The position numbers and the translations under genes are program-made. Of a stretch of 64,000 bases of DNA, positions 1 through 62,279 are shown piece after piece (the first letter of the stretch is position 1; every line of letters begins with the position of its first letter). Source of the DNA: Thecaphora thlaspeos (lineage: Eukaryota > Basidiomycota > Ustilaginomycetes > Urocystidales > Glomosporiaceae); assembly GCA_900291925.1 (NCBI GenBank), contig UWYS01000004.1:1-64000 (forward strand). The letters are read 5' to 3'. The notes beneath the pieces are model-generated. The model was not told the DNA's origin, made no database searches, and saw only the letters and a list, made by a program, of their open reading frames with translations.

Positions 1-22
1 AACCCTAACCCTAACCCTAACC

Positions 23-63
<41 letters not shown>

Positions 64-204
64 CCCTAACCCTAACCCTAACCCTAACCCTAACCCTAAC
101 CCTAACCCTAACCCTAACCCTAACCCTAACCCTAACCCTAACCCTAACCCTAACCCTAACCCTAACCCTAACCCTAACCCTAACCCTAACCCTAACCCTA
201 ACCC
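1..204. repeat. Telomere repeat array (CCCTAA)n
   Basis: About 34 tandem CCCTAA units run from the first base to about position 204, so this is the C-rich strand of a left chromosome end with TTAGGG-type telomeres. One unit near position 44 carries an extra A (CCCTAAA). The array ends sharply at ACCCATAGGCTG and unique sequence follows. Confidence 0.98.
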
Positions 205-874
205 ATAGGCTGACTAATGCTTGGGGATAATAGGATGCTGGCCCAAAATCTAGTTAGCACTTCATATCTGGAGAAAAAGTTAGGCCCAGCTAGCCATCTG
301 AGGTAGGGTTAGGGTCACAAGGGTCCCCTCCAGAAAACCTGAAAAGCGGCCTCTTTGAATGCATGGGTGGGTAGATGGGACCAAAAGGGGGCCTTTGGGA
401 GATTTTGGCGAAACCCTATTTCGTTGCATCGGAGATATAGACTGTCAAAGTTGGCACTGGGATCCTGAGGAGGAAAAAAAATTATTTACATTTCAGATAT
501 CACCATGTCTGTTGCATGGAGGTTGTAGAGGGTAAGTTCAGGGTCATGGGACATCCATTGGATTGCCATTTGGTTGAGCGGTTGGAGCAGGAGCGGGCCT
601 GAAACAAGTAATCCCCTCGGTTAGCTCTGTTGGTTAGCTTGCCCAAACTTTGTCGACGGAATTTTTGACCCCTACCTACGTTGACCTGCCTCGATCGAAC
701 CATTCCGTTTCGAGTATCCCCCGACCGGCCCGCTTTAGAACACACGTGCGTGCGCGTCGTAGCGGTTACGGACGTACCCGTCGTGCTCTGACGCGACGAG
801 AGACGACGTAAGTTGGCGCGGGTTTAGGAAGGGTCAAGTCACTGTCCGGATTCTCTATTCTAGCGGCGGCACGG
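205..874. other. Short subtelomeric spacer, no gene seen
   Basis: About 670 bases separate the telomere from the stop codon of the first gene. The sequence is less GC-rich than the rest and holds no convincing reading frame; an 81-codon frame at 500-745 on the minus strand has no recognisable motif. No RecQ helicase or other typical subtelomeric gene family is present. Confidence 0.6.
304..314 (+). repeat. Interstitial telomere-like motif, inverted
   Basis: TAGGGTTAGGG lies about 100 bases inside the telomere, with the G-rich strand on the plus strand, opposite to the terminal array. It is under two full units, so it may be a healing scar, a binding site for a telomere protein, or chance. 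Confidence 0.5.
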
Positions 875-51027: not shown

Positions 51028-51126
51028 AACGCCTTTCCCTGGGAATCCGGCCTCGCAATCTACTCGTCGGCCTTGCTCACCACCACCACCACCACCACCC
51101 TTGCTGTCACTGCTACACCACCTGCA
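51028..51126 (+). repeat. Left terminal inverted repeat of the transposon
   Basis: Starts AACGCCTTTCCCTGGGAAT and continues through ACTCGTCGGCCTTGCTCACC, a CAC triplet run and TGCTGTCACTGCTACACCA. It pairs with the right end with a few mismatches and a different CAC copy number. CpG dinucleotides survive in the outer 60 bases. Confidence 0.88.
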
Positions 51127-51227
51127 TTAAATCTTGCTCTCTGGAACAGCACAGCAGCACCTCTCTACTGCCAGCACCACCCTGTCTATGCACCTCTTGC
51201 TCTCCATCATAGGCCATGATGCTGCAG

Positions 51228-53092
51228 ATGGTCCTGCCAGCATACCAACAAGCAGTCAGGAACAAGGTGGTCAAGAATTGCCAGGCAAGCAACATTGCCA
51301 TGGCTCAGGTGCTTTGACATCTGTCCAAAGCAGTGTACAAGAGCTTGTCTGCAGCAGCCAAGGCCATTGGCATGCCAAAGTAAACACTGCAAGACTGCCA
51401 GCATGGCACCCTGCCAAAGACTGCTGCCCATGCAGCACAGCAGGCCCTCTCACCAGCCACCAAGGCTGCTCTTGCCACCCACATTGAGCACTGCACCAAT
51501 CAAGGCTTCCCCCTCACCCCAGCAATGGTCCAGAATTATGCTGGAACACTGCAATTGCCTGTAGAAACTGGTGGCCACTGTCAGGTAAGGGAGCTGGGCA
51601 AGAACTGGGTGCAGCACTACCTTGAGCACCACCCACAGCTCTGGATCAAGTACAACCAAGCTCTAGAGAATCAGCACATGGATGGTGCCTCATTCAACAA
51701 CCTCAACTGCTTCTATGCCAACTTTTCCTGCACCATCAGCCAGTACAACATTGCACAAGACCAGATCTACAACATGGACAAGACTGGCATCATCATGGGG
51801 TTCAGCAGACATCAGAAGGTCATTGTCCCAGTTAAGAAGAAGAAGAATGCCTTCCATGTCCATCCAGGCAACCATGAGTCCACCACTGTTGTTGAGTGCA
51901 TTGGCTCTAGCAGCCTCTTTCTTGACCTGCTCATGATCTGGAAAGGCACATAGCACCAGCTTGGAGATCACGGGGGGGGGGGGGGATGGAAGGACCAGGC
52001 CCCAACTGGCACTTTGCCATCTTGCCAAAGGGCTGGACAAGCAATGACTTGGTGCTTGAGTGGCTTCAACAGGTCTTTGAGCCACAAACCAAGCCAACTG
52101 GGGCTCAAGAGGGTGATTGGTGGCTGCTGCTCCTTGATAGGCATATCTTGCATGTCTCTGTTGACTTCTGCAACCAGTGCTGGAAGCACCACATTGTGCC
52201 AGTCTGCTTTCTGGCTCACACCACCCACATTATCCAGCCTCTTGATACCAGCATCTTTGGCCCCATCAAGGACAGCTATGGCTGTCAGGTTGCTGCTCTT
52301 GGTAGCACAAAGAAGGTTGACTGCATCTACTTTGCTTGGTTCTATGCTGAGGCCCACAGCAAGATCAAGGATGCTGCAGTATGCAAGGCCTTTTCAGATG
52401 TGGGTCTGATGGTGCCACCCTCCCCTGAGAAGGTCCTCTTGATGCTCTCTGGCTACAAGCCACCTTGCCAAGAGATGCTGCTGCCTGCTCAGGAGCCCTT
52501 CTTCAATACTCCAAGGAAGCCACAGCGCTTTGAAGCCCTCCTCAACAACTATAAGCACAGCACAAACAAGAGAGAGAGGAGCTGCATTTGCTGCAAGCTG
52601 CAGAAGGGGTTTGACAAGTTGTTCCATGGCTGCAAGCTAGTCCAAGAGAAGGAGCAATGCAGCAAGTCACCACTCAAGACAACCTTTGAGGTGGGCAACC
52701 ATTGCTACATCAGCAAGGACACCATGATCAGCTGAGCAACAGGAGAGCACCTGTGGGAAGAGAGGGTTGCAATGGACATTGCAGAGCAGCAGAGGAAGGA
52801 GGAACAAGAGTGAGCAGCCACCAAGAAGGCCAGCAAGGCAGATGCTGCAACACCAACAAAGAAGACGGCAAGGAAGGCAGCATCAAGCAAGGCAAAGGGC
52901 AAAGGCAAAGCGGCTGATGTTGCGCAACCACCCCCTCTAGCACCTGCTGAGCCTGCAGAGCCACTGCCAGCACCACCTCAACTTGCTGTTGATCCTGCTT
53001 CTGCTGGACCAAGCTCTCTTGCCTTGTATGACCCCTGGCTCCTCTTCCCCAACCCATCTGGCAGCAGTTCTGGACCAGACAAGCAAAGCTGA
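51228..53092 (+). pseudogene. Degenerate pogo/Fot1-type transposase (CENP-B HTH + DDE)
   Basis: A frame from the ATG at 51228 reads helix-turn-helix sequence (including SKAVYKSLSAAAKAIGMPK), then a CENP-B-like second HTH with GFPLTPAMVQNYA. The DDE catalytic domain follows: first Asp in YNMDKTGI, second in LLLLDRHILH, third in HIIQPLDTSIFGPIKDSY. The second motif normally reads DGHGSH, so it is altered here. The C-terminal tail is Lys/Ala/Pro-rich. The frame is broken by stops at 51315 (TGA), 51381 (TAA), 51951 (TAG), 52733 (TGA) and 52811 (TGA), and by a frame change at a G14 run (51972-51985). All three TGA codons sit where Arg would suit the context, consistent with CGA to TGA. No active transposase can be made from this copy. 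Confidence 0.88.
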
Positions 53093-53155
53093 GCATGTAC
53101 TATTTGGAGCAAGTGTTGAACTGATTGCAGTGCTTGTCTGGTGTGCTTGACAGAG

Positions 53156-53245
53156 TGCAGATGGTGTAGCAGTGACAGCAAGGGTGGTGGTGGTGAGGAA
53201 GGCCGACGAGTAAATTTTTCCGCCGGATTGCCAGGGAAATGCGTT
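53156..53245 (-). repeat. Right terminal inverted repeat of the transposon
   Basis: Read on the minus strand it begins AACGCATTTCCCTGGCAAT, then ACTCGTCGGCCTTCCTCACC, a shorter CAC run and TGCTGTCACTGCTACACCA, matching the left end. CpG is retained in the outer part only. Confidence 0.88.
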
Positions 53246-53989: not shown

Positions 53990-56900
53990 CTACTCGTCGT
54001 CGTCGAGTGCGATCGGCTCGACGGCCGAACCACGTCCTTTCGTTGCCCGGGCTACCTTGCGGCGTGGCTTGCTGCGCGGCTTGGTCTCCTCCTCCTCCTC
54101 CTCCTCTCGCTCGTCGCTCCCGTCGTCTCTCGAGCGCTTCGCCTTGCTTGCCGCGTTGACGTCGCGCAGCACGAGCGTTCCGCCGGCCGCCTCGTCGAAA
54201 CGCGCATGAAGCTCGTCGACGGCGAGTGTAATCTTCTCCCGCCGCTCTATCGTCTCCTGATCGATTGTCTCCATCGCAATGAATCGCCACACGTACACCT
54301 TCTTCGTCTGTCCGTATCGAACGCACCTTCCGATAGCCTGCGTCATCGTCGCGTCGTACTGCTGCTGCTCCTGCTTGAGCAACGGTCCGACAAAGATGAC
54401 GTGGTTTGCTACCGTCAAGTTGCTTCCTGCCGCGCTCTCGTCGTCGACGTTGAGCAGCAACACCCGAGCTCCATGCTCGTCTTGGTACGCTTCGAGGAGC
54501 GAGCTGCGTCGTGACGCCGTTCCCGTCAGCTGTACGAAGCTCACCCCGTACGCCGCCAGCGCCTCGGCCACCGTCGCTGTCAGCGTCTCGAATTGAACAA
54601 AGACGAGCGCGCGTTCCTCCTTGGGCAGCCGCTTCACCAGGCTGCACAGCAGCGCCAGCTTCGTCCCGTACCGCGTCGCCGCGCCGTCGTCCTCGGCGCC
54701 CAGCGAAGACGCATGCACCACCGACGTCGGTTTTGCCAGCGCCGCGCATCCTCCCGTCGGACACTGGCCGATGTAGGCTTCGCGCACGATGCACTCCCGA
54801 CAGCCGCTGTGGCCGCACGTCGAGCTGATCGCGATCGCCTCGAGCGGCAGTCGCTGCCCCCGGTGCGCGCACGCCGACGAGGGACAGACGACGTTGACCT
54901 CGACGCCCTCGAGGTGGGCGCGCTGGCAGTCGCGGATCGCCGTAAAGAAGCGCAGCGCATTGATGCGTCCCACGAGCTCGTTGCGCAGCCGCGTCAGCTG
55001 GTGCACCATGGCGCGCAGGTGGTACTCCTCGCCCCATGCCAGGTCCTTGGCGCTGAGCTTCTTCTTGCCCTCGCCGTCGTCGCCGCCCTTCTCGGCAGCC
55101 GCGCGCTCCTTTTCGCGCCGCTTGAGCGCAGCCTGGAGCGCGGCCTTGGGCGCCCCATGCCCACCGAAACGGCGTTTGGCCGCCCCGCTCGTGATGCTCG
55201 CCATCGTGCAGTCGGCCTTCTGGAGGATCTCGCGCACCATCTCCTTGGACTCGCCGTCGCCCCACGACGCATTGAGCGCGTTACGGACAAAGTCGCGGAA
55301 GAATTGGCGGTTCTCGTCGCGGAAGCCAAAGTGGTGTAGGACGAGGAGGTGCTGCTCGAGCGCCAGCGGCAGCTCGCGCTCCAGTTGGAGCTTGCAGTCC
55401 TGCAGCTGCTTCTTGCGCTCGCGCACGATGTACTCACACGCCTTGATCGCATTGTTGACGCCCTTGATCTTGGTCAGGTCGACGCCGGCAAAGTCGTCGT
55501 ACACCGAGGCCCGCTTCAGCAGCGCCTCCTCGGGCGACGCGCTGTTGCCGAGCGTCTCGATCAGCCTACGGTCGCGGTGGCTCATCTCGAGGTTAGGATC
55601 GCCCTTTTTGCTGCCAACCTTCTTGGCGGCAGTGGCGGCGGCAGCCTTGCCCTTCTTCTGCTTCGTGCCGCCGATGTCGTCCGAATTCTCCTCCTCGTCG
55701 TCGTCCAAGAAATCGTCGGTGGTGGCCTTCTTCTTCGTCGCTGCTGCTGCTGATGCGGCGGCGGCGGCGGCGATTGTCGAGGTGCCGCGCGCCTTGCCCT
55801 TGCCCTTGAACATCTTGCGCTGGTGGCGCAGGTCCAGGTTCTCGATGGCGTGCGCCAGCTCGAGGTAGAGGGCCGACTCGGCGGCGGGCAGGCGTATGGG
55901 CTTGATCAGCTGCTCACTCGGCAGCTCGCCGATCTCGGGCTCGTTGCTGCGGACGTAGGCGTCGAGGAAACGCTGCGCCACCTGCTGGCGACGATGGTGC
56001 CAGGCGGGAGAGTGCATCTCGCGGAAGTTGTTGAACTTCTCGGCCGCAGTTCGGTTCTTTTCGCGCGCGCGGCGCACCGAGTCCTTGAGCGTGTCGGCGT
56101 CGTCGTCGACACCGAGGTGAAGATTGAGGAAGACGGCGATGCTCTTGACGTCGCTAAAGTCGGCCGTCGGCGGCGTGCCGGAGAGGATCCACTTGGCGCG
56201 CGCCTGGAGACTGGTGACGCCCGAGAGCGTCCGGTCGGCCGCCTCGGCGATGTAGTGGAACTCGTCGACGACGACGCGGTTCCACATGAACATCTCGAGC
56301 GGCGGGCACTTCATCCGGCGCCAGTCCTTGCGCACCGACGCCGATCCCAGCCCCCACGGATCGGGCTCGGCCTTACCCTTGGTCTGGAAGTCCTTGTGCA
56401 GTTTGAAAGCGGCGTCGTCGTCATCGTCGTCGCTGCCCGCCTCCTTCTTGGCCTTGCCGCCGTGGGCGTCGGCGTACGCCTGGCCGATCAGTCGGCCGCG
56501 CGCCTTGTGGCTCGTCATGTGGGAGTTGTCAAAGTCAGCCCGGTTGCGGATCGACTCGGCCAGCTTTCGGACGCCGCTGCCTTCTCCCTCGCCATCGTTG
56601 GTGGCGGTCAGATCCTTGACGCGGTTGCGCAGCGCCGCGAGCGAGCGCTTGAGCGCCGCGTTGAAGAAGCGGCCGGGCCGGTTCGGCAGCGGGTTGACGG
56701 CGGCGACGCGCGCGAGCGCCTCCCAGTACGTGTCGCTCTTGTAGACGGTGACCGACATGATGATGATGTCGGCCTCGAGGACGTCGCGGACGGAGAGCTT
56801 GTTGAGCTCGAGCTTCGAGGTGATGACGGGTACGGCGAGCTTGTTACCGCAGAACTTGCCCACCTCCTTCTCCCACTGCTTGCACAGGTGACCCGGGACG

Positions 56901-59900
56901 ATGACGAGCGTCGCCTTGGTCGGGACGAAGGCGTGCGTGTCGCTCTCGGGCAGCTCGGGGAGCTTGTTGCGATTGGGCGAGGCGGCGATCAGGGCGAGCG
57001 AGATGGCCGTCTTGCCGTAGCCGACGGCATCGGCCAGTACGCCGCCGCGAACCGTGACGGGGCGCGTCGCGCGGCCCTCGGCGCGCCAGCCGAACGGCGT
57101 CAGCAGGCCCTCGGAGATCTCCTCCTCGTAAAAGGGCTTGGCGTCATCGCGCTCCTGCGCGAGCATCCAGGTGAGCGAGCGCTTCTGCTCCTTGCGCAGC
57201 TCGAGCGCAAAGATGCTCGGGTTGGCCGCCTCGCCATCCTGTCGGTTGCTCTTGATTGTGTACTGGGGCAGGCCAAACATCGTCAGCGAGCGGTCGAGCC
57301 TAGTCAGGCGCCACGACAGCTCAACGTCGCCCGCGTGCGGCGTCGCGGGAAGGCGCGAGAGGGCGCGATGCATCAGCGTCGCCGCATTGATGCCGAATCG
57401 CGTCTGCGCCAGGCCGTCCTTGAGGCGGAGGTGCATCACGAACGGCGCCGGGCGGTTCTTGAGCGCCTGCTCGTAAGGGCCGGCCTGCTGGGTGTTTTCG
57501 ATGGGGACCACGGGGCGGCCGGGGACCGCGAGCCACTGGATGTCGGGCTCGGCCGGCGCGCACCGTTTGCACGTCGCGGTGGCGAGGTCGAGCGTGTCGT
57601 GCTTGGCCTCCATCCAGCCTTGGAACGCCGTGATGTCCGGGACACGCTCGACGAGCCAGGCGAGGTGGCTAAAGGTCATGTTGGTCTTATGCAGCAAGTC
57701 GACCTGGCCCCACGCCCCGCCAACGGGCCAGATGCGGTTGTCCTCGGCCGTCCGCACGGGCGCCGAGCACTCGAGTACGGCCAGAGCGCACTCGCAGCCC
57801 TGGCGGCGCAGGTCGAGCTCAACCGGAGTGCTGGCGACGTTGATCTCGCCGTCGACGTCCACGCCCGCCTGGACCGCAAAGCCCGGCGCCAGCGTCCACG
57901 TCCCGTCGATCTGGAGCGGGACCTGCTCGACGATCTCGGTCTGCTTGCCCTTTGGCAGCTTGGGCTTCCAGCCGGCGGGCAGCCGTCCGAGGGCGGTGCG
58001 CTCCAAGGGGTAGGGGAGGCGTCCGATGTCGGTCGAAAAGACGAAGCGGTCGCCGCCCGCGTCCTTGTACCGGTCGGCGTCGAGGAAGAGGTACAGCTTG
58101 CGCGAGTCGGGCCCGGCCGCGTCGCCGCTGGTGCTGCCGCTGCGGCGCAGATGGAGCGCGCAGTTGGCGGTCCCGCACTGCGCGAGCAGATCGTAGGTCC
58201 CCTCGATGTCGCTGTCGAGGTGCGCCCGGGCCTCATCGGGGACAGCGACGCGCATCTCCGAGAAGCGTTTGGTGTCGGCGTACTTGCCGCCGAGCCCGAG
58301 TGCGCTCTGCCACGTCGGGACCTGGTCACCCGTCGACGTGATGCTGATCTTGAAGACGTTTTCGGTCGGCAGGTTGAGCTCCCAGCGGCCGTGGAACAGC
58401 CCGACGTCGGTCGCCTTCGGGTCGAGCGCCATCCGGGCGACGGGCTGCATCAGCGTCGCGCGCAGCTTGCTCCCCGCTGGCTCGGTCGGCAGCGCGTCAA
58501 CAAAGATGCGCCAGTGCGGCGCCGCTCGATCGAGACTGAGGTCGAGGCGGGCCCCCGGCGCGGCGAAGCGCGCCTGCCACGCCTTCTGGCGCAGCAGGTC
58601 CTGGAAGCGGAACTCCGTCTCGCTCAACGCCTCGCTCACTCGTTGACTCCACTCAAGCGCAAGGATCCGGTCGCGGCTCGGCAGATCGGCCGAGAGCGCG
58701 GCGATGTCGTCCATCGTGATGACGGCCGTCTGGAGACGCATCGGGAGCGAGCGCTTGAGGTGCTCGGCAAAGTCGTCCGGCAGCGTCCGCGGCCGCGGGT
58801 CGAGCTCAAAGTCGTGAACGGGCCGGCCCTTGCAGCTCTCGCAGGCGGTGTGGTCGCAGCTGGCGCATCGGTAGATGGCGCGCTCGGTCGTCATGGTGCG
58901 CCCCTCGCAGATGCAGAGCTGCGAGCTGTCGACGGCCTCCTTCAGCAGCGCCGGCATCGAGACGTCGACGCTGCTCGTCAGATTGAGTGTGCGCGTCTCG
59001 AGGCGGTTGGCGTCGACGATCGCGTCGCCGTCCTCGGGGACCGTGTCGACGACGTCGCTCGACTCGGCGATCGCCTCCTTGCTCTCGCGGCTCGACTCCC
59101 ACGTCCGCTTGGCCTTGCCGCACTCGGCGGCCTCGCGTGCGAAGTCCTTGCTCGCCACGATCAGCGCCGAGAGGACGCACGCGCCGACGACGGTCGAGCT
59201 CATCGCGTTGCCGGCCAGGTCCTGGAGCTGATCGTCGGTCTCGCGGGTGAGGAGGAGCTCGTCGAGAGGCAAGCCCTGCAACGACAGCGCCTCTAGGCCG
59301 ATCATCGGCGCGCCGCGGGCGGGCAGAAAGGGGATGCCCGAGGGCGTCAGGCAAGGGGCGATGCCGGGTCGCGACGAGGCGACGTTCCGGTCGACGTTCT
59401 GCGAGAGCTCCCAGATCTTGGACTTGTAGAGCGGGTCCTGGTCGAGCGCGGCGAAGCGGAGCGTGGTGATGTCGAGCAGATCGGTCACTCGCTCCGGCTG
59501 GCGGATGGCCCACTCGTTCCAGCCGTCGTGCGACATCTTGCACGTCCCGCCCTCCTCCCAGGCGGTCAGGGGCCGCGTCTTGCCGAGATCTTCCTCGTCG
59601 CGCGCCCGCTCGTGCCTATTCTGGCACTTGCTCCAGTCGATCGTCGAGCGGCCCTTGGAGAGCCCTTCGCCGTGGGCAAACTGCTGGCGCACCTTTTGGA
59701 TGCGCGGGTCGTCCGAGGGCAGGAGGAAAGCGTCGAGCGGGCTCGAGGCGGGGCGCACCAGCCAGTTGACGAGCAGGTCCCAGTTCTCCGGGAGGCAGTC
59801 GGTCGTGTTGCGCGTCGCCAGCAGGTAGCCGCGCTGGCGCGTATGCGGGATGTAGTAGTTTTTGGTGTCGAACGTGTTGCTGAAGTTGACGTCGTAGCCG

Positions 59901-61360
59901 GCCTCTTGGACGATGGCCTCGGCTACGCCGAGCCACGGCGCGTTCTTGACGTTCTCGAGAACCACGAGCGCCGGCTTGTGGCGCTTCACCCAGCCGAGCA
60001 TGCCGTGGAAAGTGCGCCCACTCTCGCCGCCGTCGTTGAGGCCCTTTTTCTTGTTGTTGAGATGCGAGTAGTCGACGCACGACGTCCCCGCAACGAGGAT
60101 GTCGACGTTACCCGGTACGTCGACCAGCGCGCCGTAGGCCGTGTGGGCACGGTCGCCGCCGAGCTCGGTGACGTCGCGGAAGAGGATCGGAGGGGAAAAG
60201 TTGCGCTCGATGTAGGCCTGCTTGAAGGACTCGATCTCGCAGCTGAAGACGTGCTCGATCTTGATGCGGATCCCGTGTTGCTCCTTGATGGCACGCGCCA
60301 TCAGCTCGAGCGCGAGCAGCGGCGACTCGGTCCCGCTGCACATGGTGGCGACGCGCAGCGGCCGGTCCTGGAGCGACTTGGCCAGTTCTAGCACACCCGG
60401 GGCCCGCGCGATCATGTCGGCGAAGATGTCGTTGAGGTCGTGGATGGGCGGAAACTTGCCCTGGGCGAGCGTGCTGCTCGCGTCGGCGAGGTGGTTCTTG
60501 ACCTTCTGCGCCGTCGGGACAAAGTCCATCCTGACGAACTTGCGGTTGCGCGCGAATCTCGACTTCCAGTCCTTGCAGCTCGACTGCGACATGTTAAGCT
60601 TGGCCGAGGAGGCGCCCGCCGCGCCGCTCTTCCGCGCCTTCTTCTTGGCCGGAGAGACATTGTCGTCGTCATCGAAAAAGTCGGAGAGCTCCTCGTAAGC
60701 TTCGTGCTGCTTTGTCGCCGTCGGCGGCGGCTTCGGCTTGGGCGACGACTTGGTTTTGACGCCAAACATGTCCGAGAGCGTCGCCTGCCGCTTCTTGGCG
60801 CTGCCAGAGGCGCTGCTGCTGGACAATGGCGTGGAGAAGAGGGACGCAAAGCCGGCGCTCTTCCTGGGCGTCTGGGAGGCCGCCGCCGCTTTGCCCTTGC
60901 CCTTGCCCTTGCCGGAAGCTGCGACGGCGGCGGCGTTTGTCAGGTCGACGAACGGCTCTTTGCCGGCAAAGTATCCCATGGCCTTAAACGCGGCCGCGAC
61001 CGGGCCGGGGGGGGCACCGTTGGCGGGTGTCTCGGGAGCAGGGCTGCTGTCGTCGTCGGCTTCGACGTCATCGCTTTCCGCGCTGTTTTCCTCCATGCTG
61101 GGTGTGCCCTTGTCGGCTAGGCTTTGGTCGTCGCTCTCGCTCTCTGCGCTCGGCGGGACGAAGGCGTCGCTCTCATCGTTGTCGTCCACTATCCTCCGCC
61201 TCTTGCTCTTGACGGGCGACTTTGAGGAGGCCTTGCCGGCCCTGCTGGCTGTACGCGAGCGAGCGAGCGGCCTGACGCCCTGATCTTCGTCGTCGCCCTC
61301 TGTGCTCGAGTCGACGAGGGAGGTGTACAAGACGCGCGACGAGGAGCGTGGAAGAGGCAT
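53990..61360 (-). CDS. DNMT5: DNMT5-type DNA cytosine methyltransferase / SNF2 ATPase
   Basis: Predicted nuclear ATP-dependent maintenance CpG methyltransferase, 2,456 residues from the ATG at 61360, uninterrupted. The N-terminus (1-260) is disordered with basic, acidic and Ser-rich stretches and a PIP-box-like QATLSDMF at 192-199. C5-methyltransferase domain (about 335-790): motif I ATMCSGTES (338), catalytic motif GTSCVDYS with Cys about 428, ENV motif LENVKNAP (468), QxR motif HTRQRGYLL and the C-terminal LQDLAGNAMSSTVVG. A Cys-rich cluster (CICEG to CESCKG, about 812-850) follows. SNF2 ATPase: Walker A LADAVGYGKTAISLAL (about 1440) and DEFH box VVVDEFHYI (about 1693). A C3HC4-type RING (about 2155-2205) lies between the lobes, then helicase C-lobe with QAIGRCVRYGQ (about 2350). 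This methyltransferase-RING-SNF2 order defines DNMT5, known from Cryptococcus for copying CpG methylation at hemimethylated sites. I see no N-terminal chromodomain. The RING splits the ATPase as in Rad5/Rad16 relatives. Confidence 0.94.
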   Translation of the reverse strand: MPLPRSSSRVLYTSLVDSSTEGDDEDQGVRPLARSRTASRAGKASSKSPVKSKRRRIVDDNDESDAFVPPSAESESDDQSLADKGTPSMEENSAESDDVEADDDSSPAPETPANGAPPGPVAAAFKAMGYFAGKEPFVDLTNAAAVAASGKGKGKGKAAAASQTPRKSAGFASLFSTPLSSSSASGSAKKRQATLSDMFGVKTKSSPKPKPPPTATKQHEAYEELSDFFDDDDNVSPAKKKARKSGAAGASSAKLNMSQSSCKDWKSRFARNRKFVRMDFVPTAQKVKNHLADASSTLAQGKFPPIHDLNDIFADMIARAPGVLELAKSLQDRPLRVATMCSGTESPLLALELMARAIKEQHGIRIKIEHVFSCEIESFKQAYIERNFSPPILFRDVTELGGDRAHTAYGALVDVPGNVDILVAGTSCVDYSHLNNKKKGLNDGGESGRTFHGMLGWVKRHKPALVVLENVKNAPWLGVAEAIVQEAGYDVNFSNTFDTKNYYIPHTRQRGYLLATRNTTDCLPENWDLLVNWLVRPASSPLDAFLLPSDDPRIQKVRQQFAHGEGLSKGRSTIDWSKCQNRHERARDEEDLGKTRPLTAWEEGGTCKMSHDGWNEWAIRQPERVTDLLDITTLRFAALDQDPLYKSKIWELSQNVDRNVASSRPGIAPCLTPSGIPFLPARGAPMIGLEALSLQGLPLDELLLTRETDDQLQDLAGNAMSSTVVGACVLSALIVASKDFAREAAECGKAKRTWESSRESKEAIAESSDVVDTVPEDGDAIVDANRLETRTLNLTSSVDVSMPALLKEAVDSSQLCICEGRTMTTERAIYRCASCDHTACESCKGRPVHDFELDPRPRTLPDDFAEHLKRSLPMRLQTAVITMDDIAALSADLPSRDRILALEWSQRVSEALSETEFRFQDLLRQKAWQARFAAPGARLDLSLDRAAPHWRIFVDALPTEPAGSKLRATLMQPVARMALDPKATDVGLFHGRWELNLPTENVFKISITSTGDQVPTWQSALGLGGKYADTKRFSEMRVAVPDEARAHLDSDIEGTYDLLAQCGTANCALHLRRSGSTSGDAAGPDSRKLYLFLDADRYKDAGGDRFVFSTDIGRLPYPLERTALGRLPAGWKPKLPKGKQTEIVEQVPLQIDGTWTLAPGFAVQAGVDVDGEINVASTPVELDLRRQGCECALAVLECSAPVRTAEDNRIWPVGGAWGQVDLLHKTNMTFSHLAWLVERVPDITAFQGWMEAKHDTLDLATATCKRCAPAEPDIQWLAVPGRPVVPIENTQQAGPYEQALKNRPAPFVMHLRLKDGLAQTRFGINAATLMHRALSRLPATPHAGDVELSWRLTRLDRSLTMFGLPQYTIKSNRQDGEAANPSIFALELRKEQKRSLTWMLAQERDDAKPFYEEEISEGLLTPFGWRAEGRATRPVTVRGGVLADAVGYGKTAISLALIAASPNRNKLPELPESDTHAFVPTKATLVIVPGHLCKQWEKEVGKFCGNKLAVPVITSKLELNKLSVRDVLEADIIIMSVTVYKSDTYWEALARVAAVNPLPNRPGRFFNAALKRSLAALRNRVKDLTATNDGEGEGSGVRKLAESIRNRADFDNSHMTSHKARGRLIGQAYADAHGGKAKKEAGSDDDDDDAAFKLHKDFQTKGKAEPDPWGLGSASVRKDWRRMKCPPLEMFMWNRVVVDEFHYIAEAADRTLSGVTSLQARAKWILSGTPPTADFSDVKSIAVFLNLHLGVDDDADTLKDSVRRAREKNRTAAEKFNNFREMHSPAWHHRRQQVAQRFLDAYVRSNEPEIGELPSEQLIKPIRLPAAESALYLELAHAIENLDLRHQRKMFKGKGKARGTSTIAAAAAASAAAATKKKATTDDFLDDDEEENSDDIGGTKQKKGKAAAATAAKKVGSKKGDPNLEMSHRDRRLIETLGNSASPEEALLKRASVYDDFAGVDLTKIKGVNNAIKACEYIVRERKKQLQDCKLQLERELPLALEQHLLVLHHFGFRDENRQFFRDFVRNALNASWGDGESKEMVREILQKADCTMASITSGAAKRRFGGHGAPKAALQAALKRREKERAAAEKGGDDGEGKKKLSAKDLAWGEEYHLRAMVHQLTRLRNELVGRINALRFFTAIRDCQRAHLEGVEVNVVCPSSACAHRGQRLPLEAIAISSTCGHSGCRECIVREAYIGQCPTGGCAALAKPTSVVHASSLGAEDDGAATRYGTKLALLCSLVKRLPKEERALVFVQFETLTATVAEALAAYGVSFVQLTGTASRRSSLLEAYQDEHGARVLLLNVDDESAAGSNLTVANHVIFVGPLLKQEQQQYDATMTQAIGRCVRYGQTKKVYVWRFIAMETIDQETIERREKITLAVDELHARFDEAAGGTLVLRDVNAASKAKRSRDDGSDEREEEEEEETKPRSKPRRKVARATKGRGSAVEPIALDDDE

Positions 61361-61602
61361 TGCGGACGGCGTGGACGACGAGCTAGGTAGCTGTCGCCGG
61401 CGTCGTTGAGAGGTTCCAAGAGGGAGAGAGAACGGGGGATGGGGAATGCGAGGGAGAGAGGAGGCAGGAGGGGTCGGTGGAGAAGCGTGAGTGGGAGGGT
61501 CTATGGCAAAGGGCCGAGGTGTCGCTGGGTGGCGGGTCTCCCTATCCTGCTGGGGAAGAAGAGAGAAGGGGAGGAGGGAGGCCAAGAGATCGAAGGAGCG
61601 AG

Positions 61603-61639
<37 letters not shown>

Positions 61640-62279
61640 GGGATGTGAGGGGGGAGCGTGGCTCACACTCACTCTGGCCCTGTGCCTCTCTCTCTCTCTC
61701 TCCCACAAGACCCTCGACTAAGTTAGACTCTCCCTCTATCTCCGTCTGGCAGACGAGCAGGCGAGCGGACCAGCCGGCGAGGCCAACCAGCACGCCCCTA
61801 GCCTGCCTTGGCCGCGCTGACCTTGCTGACGTGAGCGCGCGTCGCGTCCGGCCGGGTGCCGAGGGCGTTCAGTTGCTGCTTTCTCACGCAAGGCGCATGC
61901 GCGTCGCGTTAAATCCCCCGCCGCCAGCGCAAGGGCGTGGCTTCACGGCGTGGCTTCACGGCGTGCAGGCATTCCCTCCTGCGCCTGGCTAGGCGTTTCT
62001 CGCGTCCGAGCTTCCTACGCCCAGCAAGGGCGGGACCGCACGAGACACAGACACGATCGGTGCAGCCGTCGACGGTCGGGGAGTCTGAGCGACAGACTAC
62101 AAGGCAAGGGGGGTCGCGTCGTATCGGTGTCGTTACAGGCCGAGAGAAGTACATACAGGAGCAAACGTAACCGTTTGTCGACATTGCGCTGGAAAGTCCA
62201 TCGTAAGAAAAGAGGCCCAGTCAAGAAGCTAGCGCCAAGGAAAGAGCCATCCCGTCCCTCGCTACCGCGTCGTCCTTTC
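61361..62279. other. Spacer with DNMT5 promoter and chitinase 3' flank
   Basis: 0.9 kb between two minus-strand genes. A GA dinucleotide tract lies at 61607-61637 and a CT tract at 61687-61703, within the presumed DNMT5 leader/promoter. GGCGTGGCTTCAC is directly repeated at about 61934-61960. No gene is seen. Confidence 0.5.

What the first reader, a model, noticed from the sequence alone, without database searches (positions are those of the whole stretch)
51028..53245. Transposon stripped of CpG next to a DNMT5 methylase gene
Seen: only five CpG (about 51970, 52525, 52866, 52911, 52923) in some 2.1 kb of transposon interior, in a genome where a single 60-base line often has five to ten. Three of five in-frame stops are TGA where Arg (CGA) fits. 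Known: 5-methylcytosine in CpG deaminates to T, and DNMT5 maintains CpG methylation in Cryptococcus. Inference: this lineage methylates transposons at CpG and loses them by deamination or a RIP-like process, and the window holds both the likely enzyme and its scar.
Basis: partly seen in the sequence, partly recalled or inferred. Interest (0 to 1): 0.87.

Follow-up and report, generated by a model that had tools for sequence, protein, structure and literature searches.

The report
Transposon copies individually stripped of CpG
In a smut fungus, long and older transposon copies have each lost nearly all their CG letter pairs by C-to-T change, while short copies and recent long copies kept them: a known kind of repeat mutation, seen here with unusually clear before-and-after copies.

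Summary
In detail: 5 CpG between 51069 and 53203, TpG/CpA in excess. The element is a dead pogo-like (DDE_1) transposon in what is very probably Thecaphora thlaspeos (genome 20,591,595 bases; 20,591,600 published).

Ancestral composition is excluded. Twelve long copies show both TG and CA at 96 of 114 inferred CpG sites. In a sister family, five long copies kept 7-10% of the CpG of a CpG-bearing relative; one LINE-like copy kept 26 of 318. The sister family has no C-to-T bias outside CpG (170 against 164). Of 46 DDE_1 matches DNA was held for 31: 28 stripped, 3 not.

Short copies (416-762 bp) of about the same age kept much more CpG, and recent long duplicates kept it too, so the process looks length-gated and mostly past. 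DNMT5 is intact; a second methyltransferase gene looks broken.

Best reading: methylation of long repeats followed by CpG deamination, now weak. A RIP-like route is a live rival. Methylation was not measured. CpG-signature mutation of basidiomycete transposons is already published (PMC4352252).

The parts
51028..53245 (+). Dead copy (F1) of a Tc1/mariner-pogo-like DNA transposon, family A
   Evidence: terminal inverted repeats; DDE_1 (E 1.2e-17); Tc5-type HTH at 21.2 bits, one bit under its cut-off of 22.2. Across the family the base before the element is T in 20 of 22 copies with a left end (this copy has C) and the base after it is A in 21 of 21 with a right end, i.e. a TA target.
51028..51126 (+). 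Left terminal inverted repeat; outer 41 bases keep 5 CpG
   Evidence: self-match of the two ends, 81%
53156..53245 (-). Right terminal inverted repeat; outer 42 bases keep 5 CpG
51069..53203 (.). CpG-stripped interior, 5 CpG in 2135 bases
51315..52813 (+). Broken transposase reading frame: five in-frame stops and one change of frame
53990..61717 (-). DNMT5 gene, uninterrupted stop-to-stop frame of 2575 codons (DNA_methylase, SNF2, Helicase_C)

Best explanation
The window holds one dead copy of a Tc1/mariner-pogo-like DNA transposon. It and other long transposon copies of this genome had nearly every CpG turned into TpG or CpA, largely each copy on its own. Shown: a C-to-T change restricted to CpG (sister family), separate in different copies, confined to the element, and sparing short relatives of about the same age and recent long duplicates. 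Inferred: the targets carried 5-methylcytosine, laid down on long repeats and kept up by DNMT5, and the methylated CpG deaminated to T faster than repair restored them. Inferred too: the process has largely stopped, perhaps because a second, DnmtX/DNMT1-like methyltransferase gene became inactive, leaving DNMT5 alone.
For: Both TG and CA at 96 of 114 inferred sites among 12 long copies; two-letter dimorphism CA/TG 79 times against 5 for the next kind. Five long family-B copies kept 7-10% of the CpG of L031; their TG/CA choice differs at 32-47% of sites in nine pairs and 12% in one; outside CpG C>T plus G>A 170 against the reverse 164. L072 to L077: of 318 CpG 277 became TG or CA and 26 stayed. 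No strand patches: neighbour agreement 0.519 against 0.521 permuted, in 10 of the 12 long copies, which fits independent events at single sites. Flanks normal beyond 50 bp in 15 of 24 flanks. An intact DNMT5 is present.
Against: No methylation data. Stripped copies show CpG change at roughly 50-75 times other transitions (my arithmetic, half of the distance assigned to each copy), more than I recall for ordinary 5mC deamination. L077 has a mild C>T excess outside CpG too (56 against 39). Spared and stripped long copies nearly touch in transversion distance (0.17-0.51% against 0.51-2.24%), so the switch in time is not sharp. The sparing of short copies is tested in one family only. The link to the second methyltransferase is a correlation within one genome, and an assembly error in that gene is not excluded.
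Confidence: 0.62

Rival explanations
1. A RIP-like process: an enzyme recognises long duplicated DNA around mating and changes C to T at CpG directly, in bursts, without lasting methylation.
For: Spared short copies of about the same age look like a length threshold (Neurospora's thresholds are recalled). Outcome nearly all-or-none: 28 of 31 DDE_1 matches held are below o/e 0.3, 3 at 0.77-0.86, none between. High CpG-specific rate. Sharp edges at the element ends.
Against: No further PF00145 gene besides DNMT5 and the broken one, so no RID-type gene was found. Long duplicates of 3.3 kb at 98% identity, three pairs, are untouched. No strand patches. RIP as described in most ascomycetes prefers CpA (PMC4352252, passages); family B shows no excess outside CpG.
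Confidence: 0.27
2. The element is CpG-poor by descent: the family arrived or evolved CpG-poor.
For: Part of the loss was shared: pairwise TG/CA disagreement in family A is 0.14-0.48, below the 0.5 of full independence, and 0.01 for E11/E12.
Against: TG/CA dimorphism, CpG-bearing relatives in family A (MITEs), family B (L031, L041, L046) and a LINE-like family (L072).
Confidence: 0.02
3. Adaptive CpG avoidance: an active element lost CpG under selection to escape methylation.
For: Some stripped copies still have long open frames around the DDE_1 match, e.g. 374 and 437 codons without a stop in the match.
Against: All 12 long family-A copies carry at least one in-frame stop against the frame of L031, and different copies lost opposite strands at the same sites, which fits damage to single copies and not descent from a favoured CpG-free master.
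Confidence: 0.03

Closest known systems
CpG-signature C-to-T mutation in basidiomycete transposons (Microbotryum and rusts, PMC4352252; CpG-biased mutation in Rhizoctonia solani AG8, PMC4014442)
   Same: C-to-T at CpG in transposon copies of a basidiomycete without a RID-type gene; methylation followed by deamination is the mechanism proposed there (passages).
   Different: Here hit and unhit copies of the same families sit side by side, short copies of about the same age and recent long copies are spared, and the only methyltransferase genes found are DNMT5 and a broken second one. A TpCpG bias is reported for Pucciniomycotina (PMC4014442, passages); here nearly all contexts are hit.
RIP of Neurospora (RID-type)
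   Same: C-to-T mutation of repeats, apparent length dependence, nearly all-or-none outcome.
   Different: CpG only in family B, not CpA; no RID-type gene found; no strand patches; recent long duplicates untouched.
Maintenance-only methylation in Cryptococcus (DNMT5 kept, DnmtX lost; PMC11185503, PMC13297926, passages)
   Same: DNMT5 intact while the other methyltransferase gene is lost or, here, apparently broken.
   Different: Different lineage (smuts); the second gene is still recognisable; no methylation measured; orthology of the second gene to DnmtX not tested.
Fot1/pogo-type transposons (name recalled)
   Same: Tc5-type HTH, DDE_1, terminal inverted repeats, TA target, MITE-like derivatives.
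   Different: Few protein relatives: three above threshold for the 602-codon frame of L031, 24-31% identical, among the 7991 candidates scored.

Membership tests
CpG-signature mutation of basidiomycete transposons | C-to-T change concentrated at CpG, both strands, in transposon copies | tested here: met
CpG-signature mutation of basidiomycete transposons | No RID-type methyltransferase in the genome | tested here: met
   PF00145 rings at two genes only, DNMT5 and the C21 gene, which is nearest to DNMT1-type proteins
CpG-signature mutation of basidiomycete transposons | Targets carry 5-methylcytosine | not testable with these tools
   No methylation data
RIP (Neurospora type) | CpA preference | tested here: not met
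   C-to-T per cytosine 0.45 at CpG, 0.046 at CpA, 0.034 at CpC and CpT in L072/L077; no bias outside CpG
RIP (Neurospora type) | RID gene present | tested here: not met
RIP (Neurospora type) | Repeats above a length threshold hit, shorter ones spared | tested here: inconclusive
   Met within family A; in family B length and age go together; recent 3.3-kb duplicates are spared
RIP (Neurospora type) | Acts in the sexual cycle | not testable with these tools
   Needs crosses
DNMT5 | Methylase domain followed by SNF2 ATPase and helicase C in one protein, conserved residues intact | tested here: met
   (invariant residues in an alignment of four proteins)
DnmtX / DNMT1-like (C21 gene) | BAH plus DNA methylase, no RFD, intact frame | tested here: not met
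   Methylase met, BAH below cut-off (17.7 of 30.8 bits), no RFD hit in the four pieces; frame interrupted
Tc1/mariner-pogo transposon | DDE_1 transposase, terminal inverted repeats, TA target | tested here: met

The most novel reading that the evidence does not exclude
This genome records the death of a repeat-sensing CpG defence. A DnmtX/DNMT1-like enzyme once marked or mutated repeats longer than about 1-1.5 kb; its gene was then inactivated; long elements that moved afterwards kept their CpG; and DNMT5 survives alone with almost no CpG left in the old targets. It would be a maintenance-only methylation lineage in the smuts, independent of Cryptococcus and dated by its own transposon scars.
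Probability: 0.22. Interest if true: 0.8.

Novelty: new member of a known kind. Interest (0 to 1): 0.55.

Why it matters
Which enzyme causes CpG-type repeat mutation in basidiomycetes, and whether it is RIP-like or plain deamination, is open in the papers I saw. This 20.6-Mb genome holds intact, half-stripped and stripped relatives, short spared copies of about the same age, an intact DNMT5 and a second methyltransferase gene that looks broken. That makes the question testable by methylation sequencing and by comparing a few close species.

Tried and rejected
Ancestral CpG-poor composition: rejected for most sites. Age alone: not enough in family A, where MITE-like copies are of about the same age by transversions but keep more CpG; by transitions they look younger (1.42% against 1.99% pairwise; 11 private against 26), and that is told here against my reading. 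Length alone: not enough, since three recent long duplicate pairs and L031 keep CpG. Strand patches as the mark of a processive deaminase: not found (z 1.01, where one of five copies has z 2.48, towards too many runs, not patches). Context: retained CpG favour GCGC and CCGC/GCGG in L077 (21 of 94 against 5 of 223) and in long family-A interiors (50 of 78 against 1120 of 3493 in intact LINE-like elements); weak in the other stripped retroelements (83 of 220, p 0.09); in family B only GCGC stands out (14 of 61; CCGC 16 of 152, near the mean). Left unexplained. Spreading heterochromatin: not favoured, though the first 50 bp of flank are at o/e 0.78. Literature: the listings showed no title on CpG loss in Thecaphora transposons; the species' genome paper (Courville 2019) was not seen.

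Full report
OBSERVATION. One search confirms the count: 5 CpG between 51069 and 53203, o/e 0.00-0.19 per 200 bases from 51201 to 53200 and TpG+CpA o/e 1.43-1.98, in a window with CpG o/e 1.12. The ends differ: five CpG lie in the outer 41 bases on the left and five in the outer 42 on the right. The element runs from 51028 to 53245 with inverted repeats and family insertions at TA. Pfam finds DDE_1, and a Tc5-type HTH one bit under its cut-off.

ORGANISM. The DNMT5 frame is 84% identical to Thecaphora frezii and 81% to Pseudozyma flocculosa over residues 420-1400. The genome has 20,591,595 bases in 32 contigs. A T. frezii paper gives 20,591,600 bp for T. thlaspeos (PMC9933313, passages), so I take it to be that species; this is an inference. 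The window begins with a run of AACCCT repeats and is the start of contig C4, so the site is subtelomeric.

COPIES. From I took 12 long copies (1712-2231 bp, 3-20 CpG each) and 11 short MITE-like copies (416-762 bp, 15-30 CpG each). One search scored 40 of 57 candidates, so numbers are lower bounds. Long copies F3 and E9 share the same flanking letters and lie beside related retroelement matches, so they are probably one insertion carried in a larger duplication; E11 and E12 are nearly identical.

INDEPENDENT LOSS, FAMILY A. Among 12 long copies I inferred 114 former CpG sites; 96 show both TG and CA. Over the whole alignment CA and TG occur in at least two copies each at 79 dinucleotides (75 of the 114 sites); the next two-letter pair does so at 5. 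The sites are inferred from the copies themselves and miss CpG lost in a common ancestor. Pairwise disagreement of 0.14-0.48 (0.01 for E11/E12) says that part of the loss was shared.

INDEPENDENT LOSS, FAMILY B AND A LINE-LIKE ELEMENT. Searches show a sister family, 68-72% identical to family A. Its copy L031 has an open frame of 602 codons and 138 aligned CpG, and itself lacks 17-24 CpG present in the shorter copies L041 and L046. Five long copies retain 14 of 138, 11 of 132, 10 of 135, 12 of 128 and 10 of 117 of these CpG. TG/CA disagreement is 32-47% in nine pairs and 12% in one. Outside CpG, C>T plus G>A (170) about equals the reverse (164). In the pair L072/L077 (reverse-transcriptase elements that I call LINE-like from memory; class not tested) 277 of 318 CpG became TG or CA, 26 remain, and L077 has no CpG of its own. 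This pair shows a mild excess of C>T plus G>A outside CpG (56 against 39). These comparisons need no inferred ancestor.

GENOME-WIDE. Of 46 DDE_1 matches I held DNA for 31: 28 are below o/e 0.3, 3 at 0.77-0.86, none between. Of 22 RVT_1 matches (16 over the family's cut-off), 8 lie in stripped DNA (central o/e 0.07-0.29), 2 (one locus) at 0.65-0.67 and 12 at 0.99 or more; whether all 12 are transposons was not tested.

LENGTH AND AGE. In family A MITE-like copies keep CpG at 87-90% of cells in the outermost 60 columns of each end and at 27-67% further in; long copies keep 25-52% and 0-11% (the column bins 120-300 and 800-1500 hold no MITE letters at these sites). By transversions in the shared region MITE-like copies (0.90% pairwise) are about as old as long copies (1.11%); private transversions are 11 in 4919 cells against 8 in 5413. 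By transitions they look younger (1.42% against 1.99%; 11 private against 26), though transitions may be raised in stripped copies by missed CpG sites. So age alone does not explain the sparing well. Stripped long pairs stand at 0.51-2.24% transversions (E11/E12 left out). Unstripped long duplicates (three LINE-like pairs; L031 with two shorter copies; those two with each other) stand at 0.17-0.51%. The groups touch at 0.51%, so a switch in time is suggested, not sharp. In family B the shorter spared copies are also younger, so length is not separable there.

RATES. In MITE-like copies CpG change per cytosine is 8-9 times other transitions. In the three intact LINE-like pairs it is about 1.4-2.2 times, and in stripped copies roughly 50-75 times (my arithmetic on the counts, half of the distance assigned to each copy). 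The last figure is higher than I recall for ordinary 5mC deamination; it keeps the enzymatic rival alive.

FOOTPRINT. Flanks are at o/e 0.78 in the first 50 bp and 0.92-1.18 from 50 to 600 bp, over 15 of 24 flanks; 9 were dropped because they were short or themselves depleted. TG and CA do not cluster by strand: L077 z 1.01, 10 of 12 family-A copies 0.519 against 0.521 permuted, family B z from -0.09 to 2.48.

MACHINERY. PF00145 rings at two genes. DNMT5 is open over 2575 codons, matches PDB chain 7r76_A (named Rad8 there; that it is the Cryptococcus DNMT5 structure is recalled) with E 0 and shares invariant residues with three relatives. The second gene, on C21, matches DNMT1 structures best and is 47% identical to an 897-aa T. 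frezii protein. Aligned to that protein, its frame is interrupted by an in-frame stop and by a frame change between adjacent residues. I read it as inactivated; an assembly error is not excluded. Its pieces give a BAH score below the cut-off and no RFD hit. SRA, Piwi and Pre-SET domains are present; the SRA and Pre-SET matches contain stops that may be introns or breaks, not resolved.

LITERATURE. Amselem et al. (PMC4352252, abstract and passages) report CpG-only signatures in basidiomycete transposons and propose methylation followed by deamination. Hane et al. (PMC4014442, passages) describe CpG-biased mutation in Rhizoctonia and cite a TpCpG bias in Pucciniomycotina. PMC7862722 and PMC13297926 (passages) say that DNMT5 maintains CpG methylation, that basidiomycetes mainly have DNMT1 and DNMT5, and that Ustilago maydis lacks methyltransferases. 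PMC11185503 (passages) describes loss of DnmtX in Cryptococcus and Bullera alba. PMC12543289 (passages) does not contain 'CpG' or 'Basidiomycota' in its main text. PMC7826943 (passages) gives 20.5 Mb and a low repeat content for T. thlaspeos. Length thresholds of RIP in Neurospora are recalled.

VERDICT. The scar is real, recurrent, concentrated at CpG and largely separate in each copy. Its most likely route is methylation followed by deamination, with a RIP-like route at about one in four. It belongs to a known kind. What is unusual is the before-and-after set, the dependence on length and age together, and a second methyltransferase gene that looks broken.

Noticed in passing
window 1-206: Telomere repeat (AACCCT)n at the start of contig C4; DNMT5 and the element are subtelomeric.
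   Followed up: no
L062/L066 (C23:158458-158945): The only half-stripped locus among the RVT_1 matches (central o/e about 0.65), with open frames of 469 and 259 codons; a candidate for a copy still decaying.
   Followed up: partly
L055 (C21:97500-106000): Second DNA methyltransferase gene, nearest to T. frezii (47%) and Testicularia cyperi (39%), with an interrupted frame.
   Followed up: partly
C5:103871 and C2:1083521: Two DDE_1 matches in open frames of 664 codons without stops; their DNA could not be read, so their CpG content is unknown. They would test the length-and-age reading.
   Followed up: no
L044 (C18:134535-135307 and 138190-138962): Two stripped DDE_1 copies with equal match scores in inverted orientation about 2.9 kb apart.
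   Followed up: no
L077, long family-A copies: Retained CpG favour GCGC and CCGC/GCGG flanks, weaker in other families; no explanation.
   Followed up: partly
L003/L009 (C1:865734, C3:535603): Copies F3 and E9 share flanking letters and sit in longer CpG-poor stretches, so they look like parts of a larger duplicated transposon cluster.
   Followed up: no
C18:458092-458614 and C18:325967-326371: SRA-domain and Pre-SET matches with stops inside the match: introns or broken genes, not resolved; relevant to whether the methylation pathway is alive.
   Followed up: no
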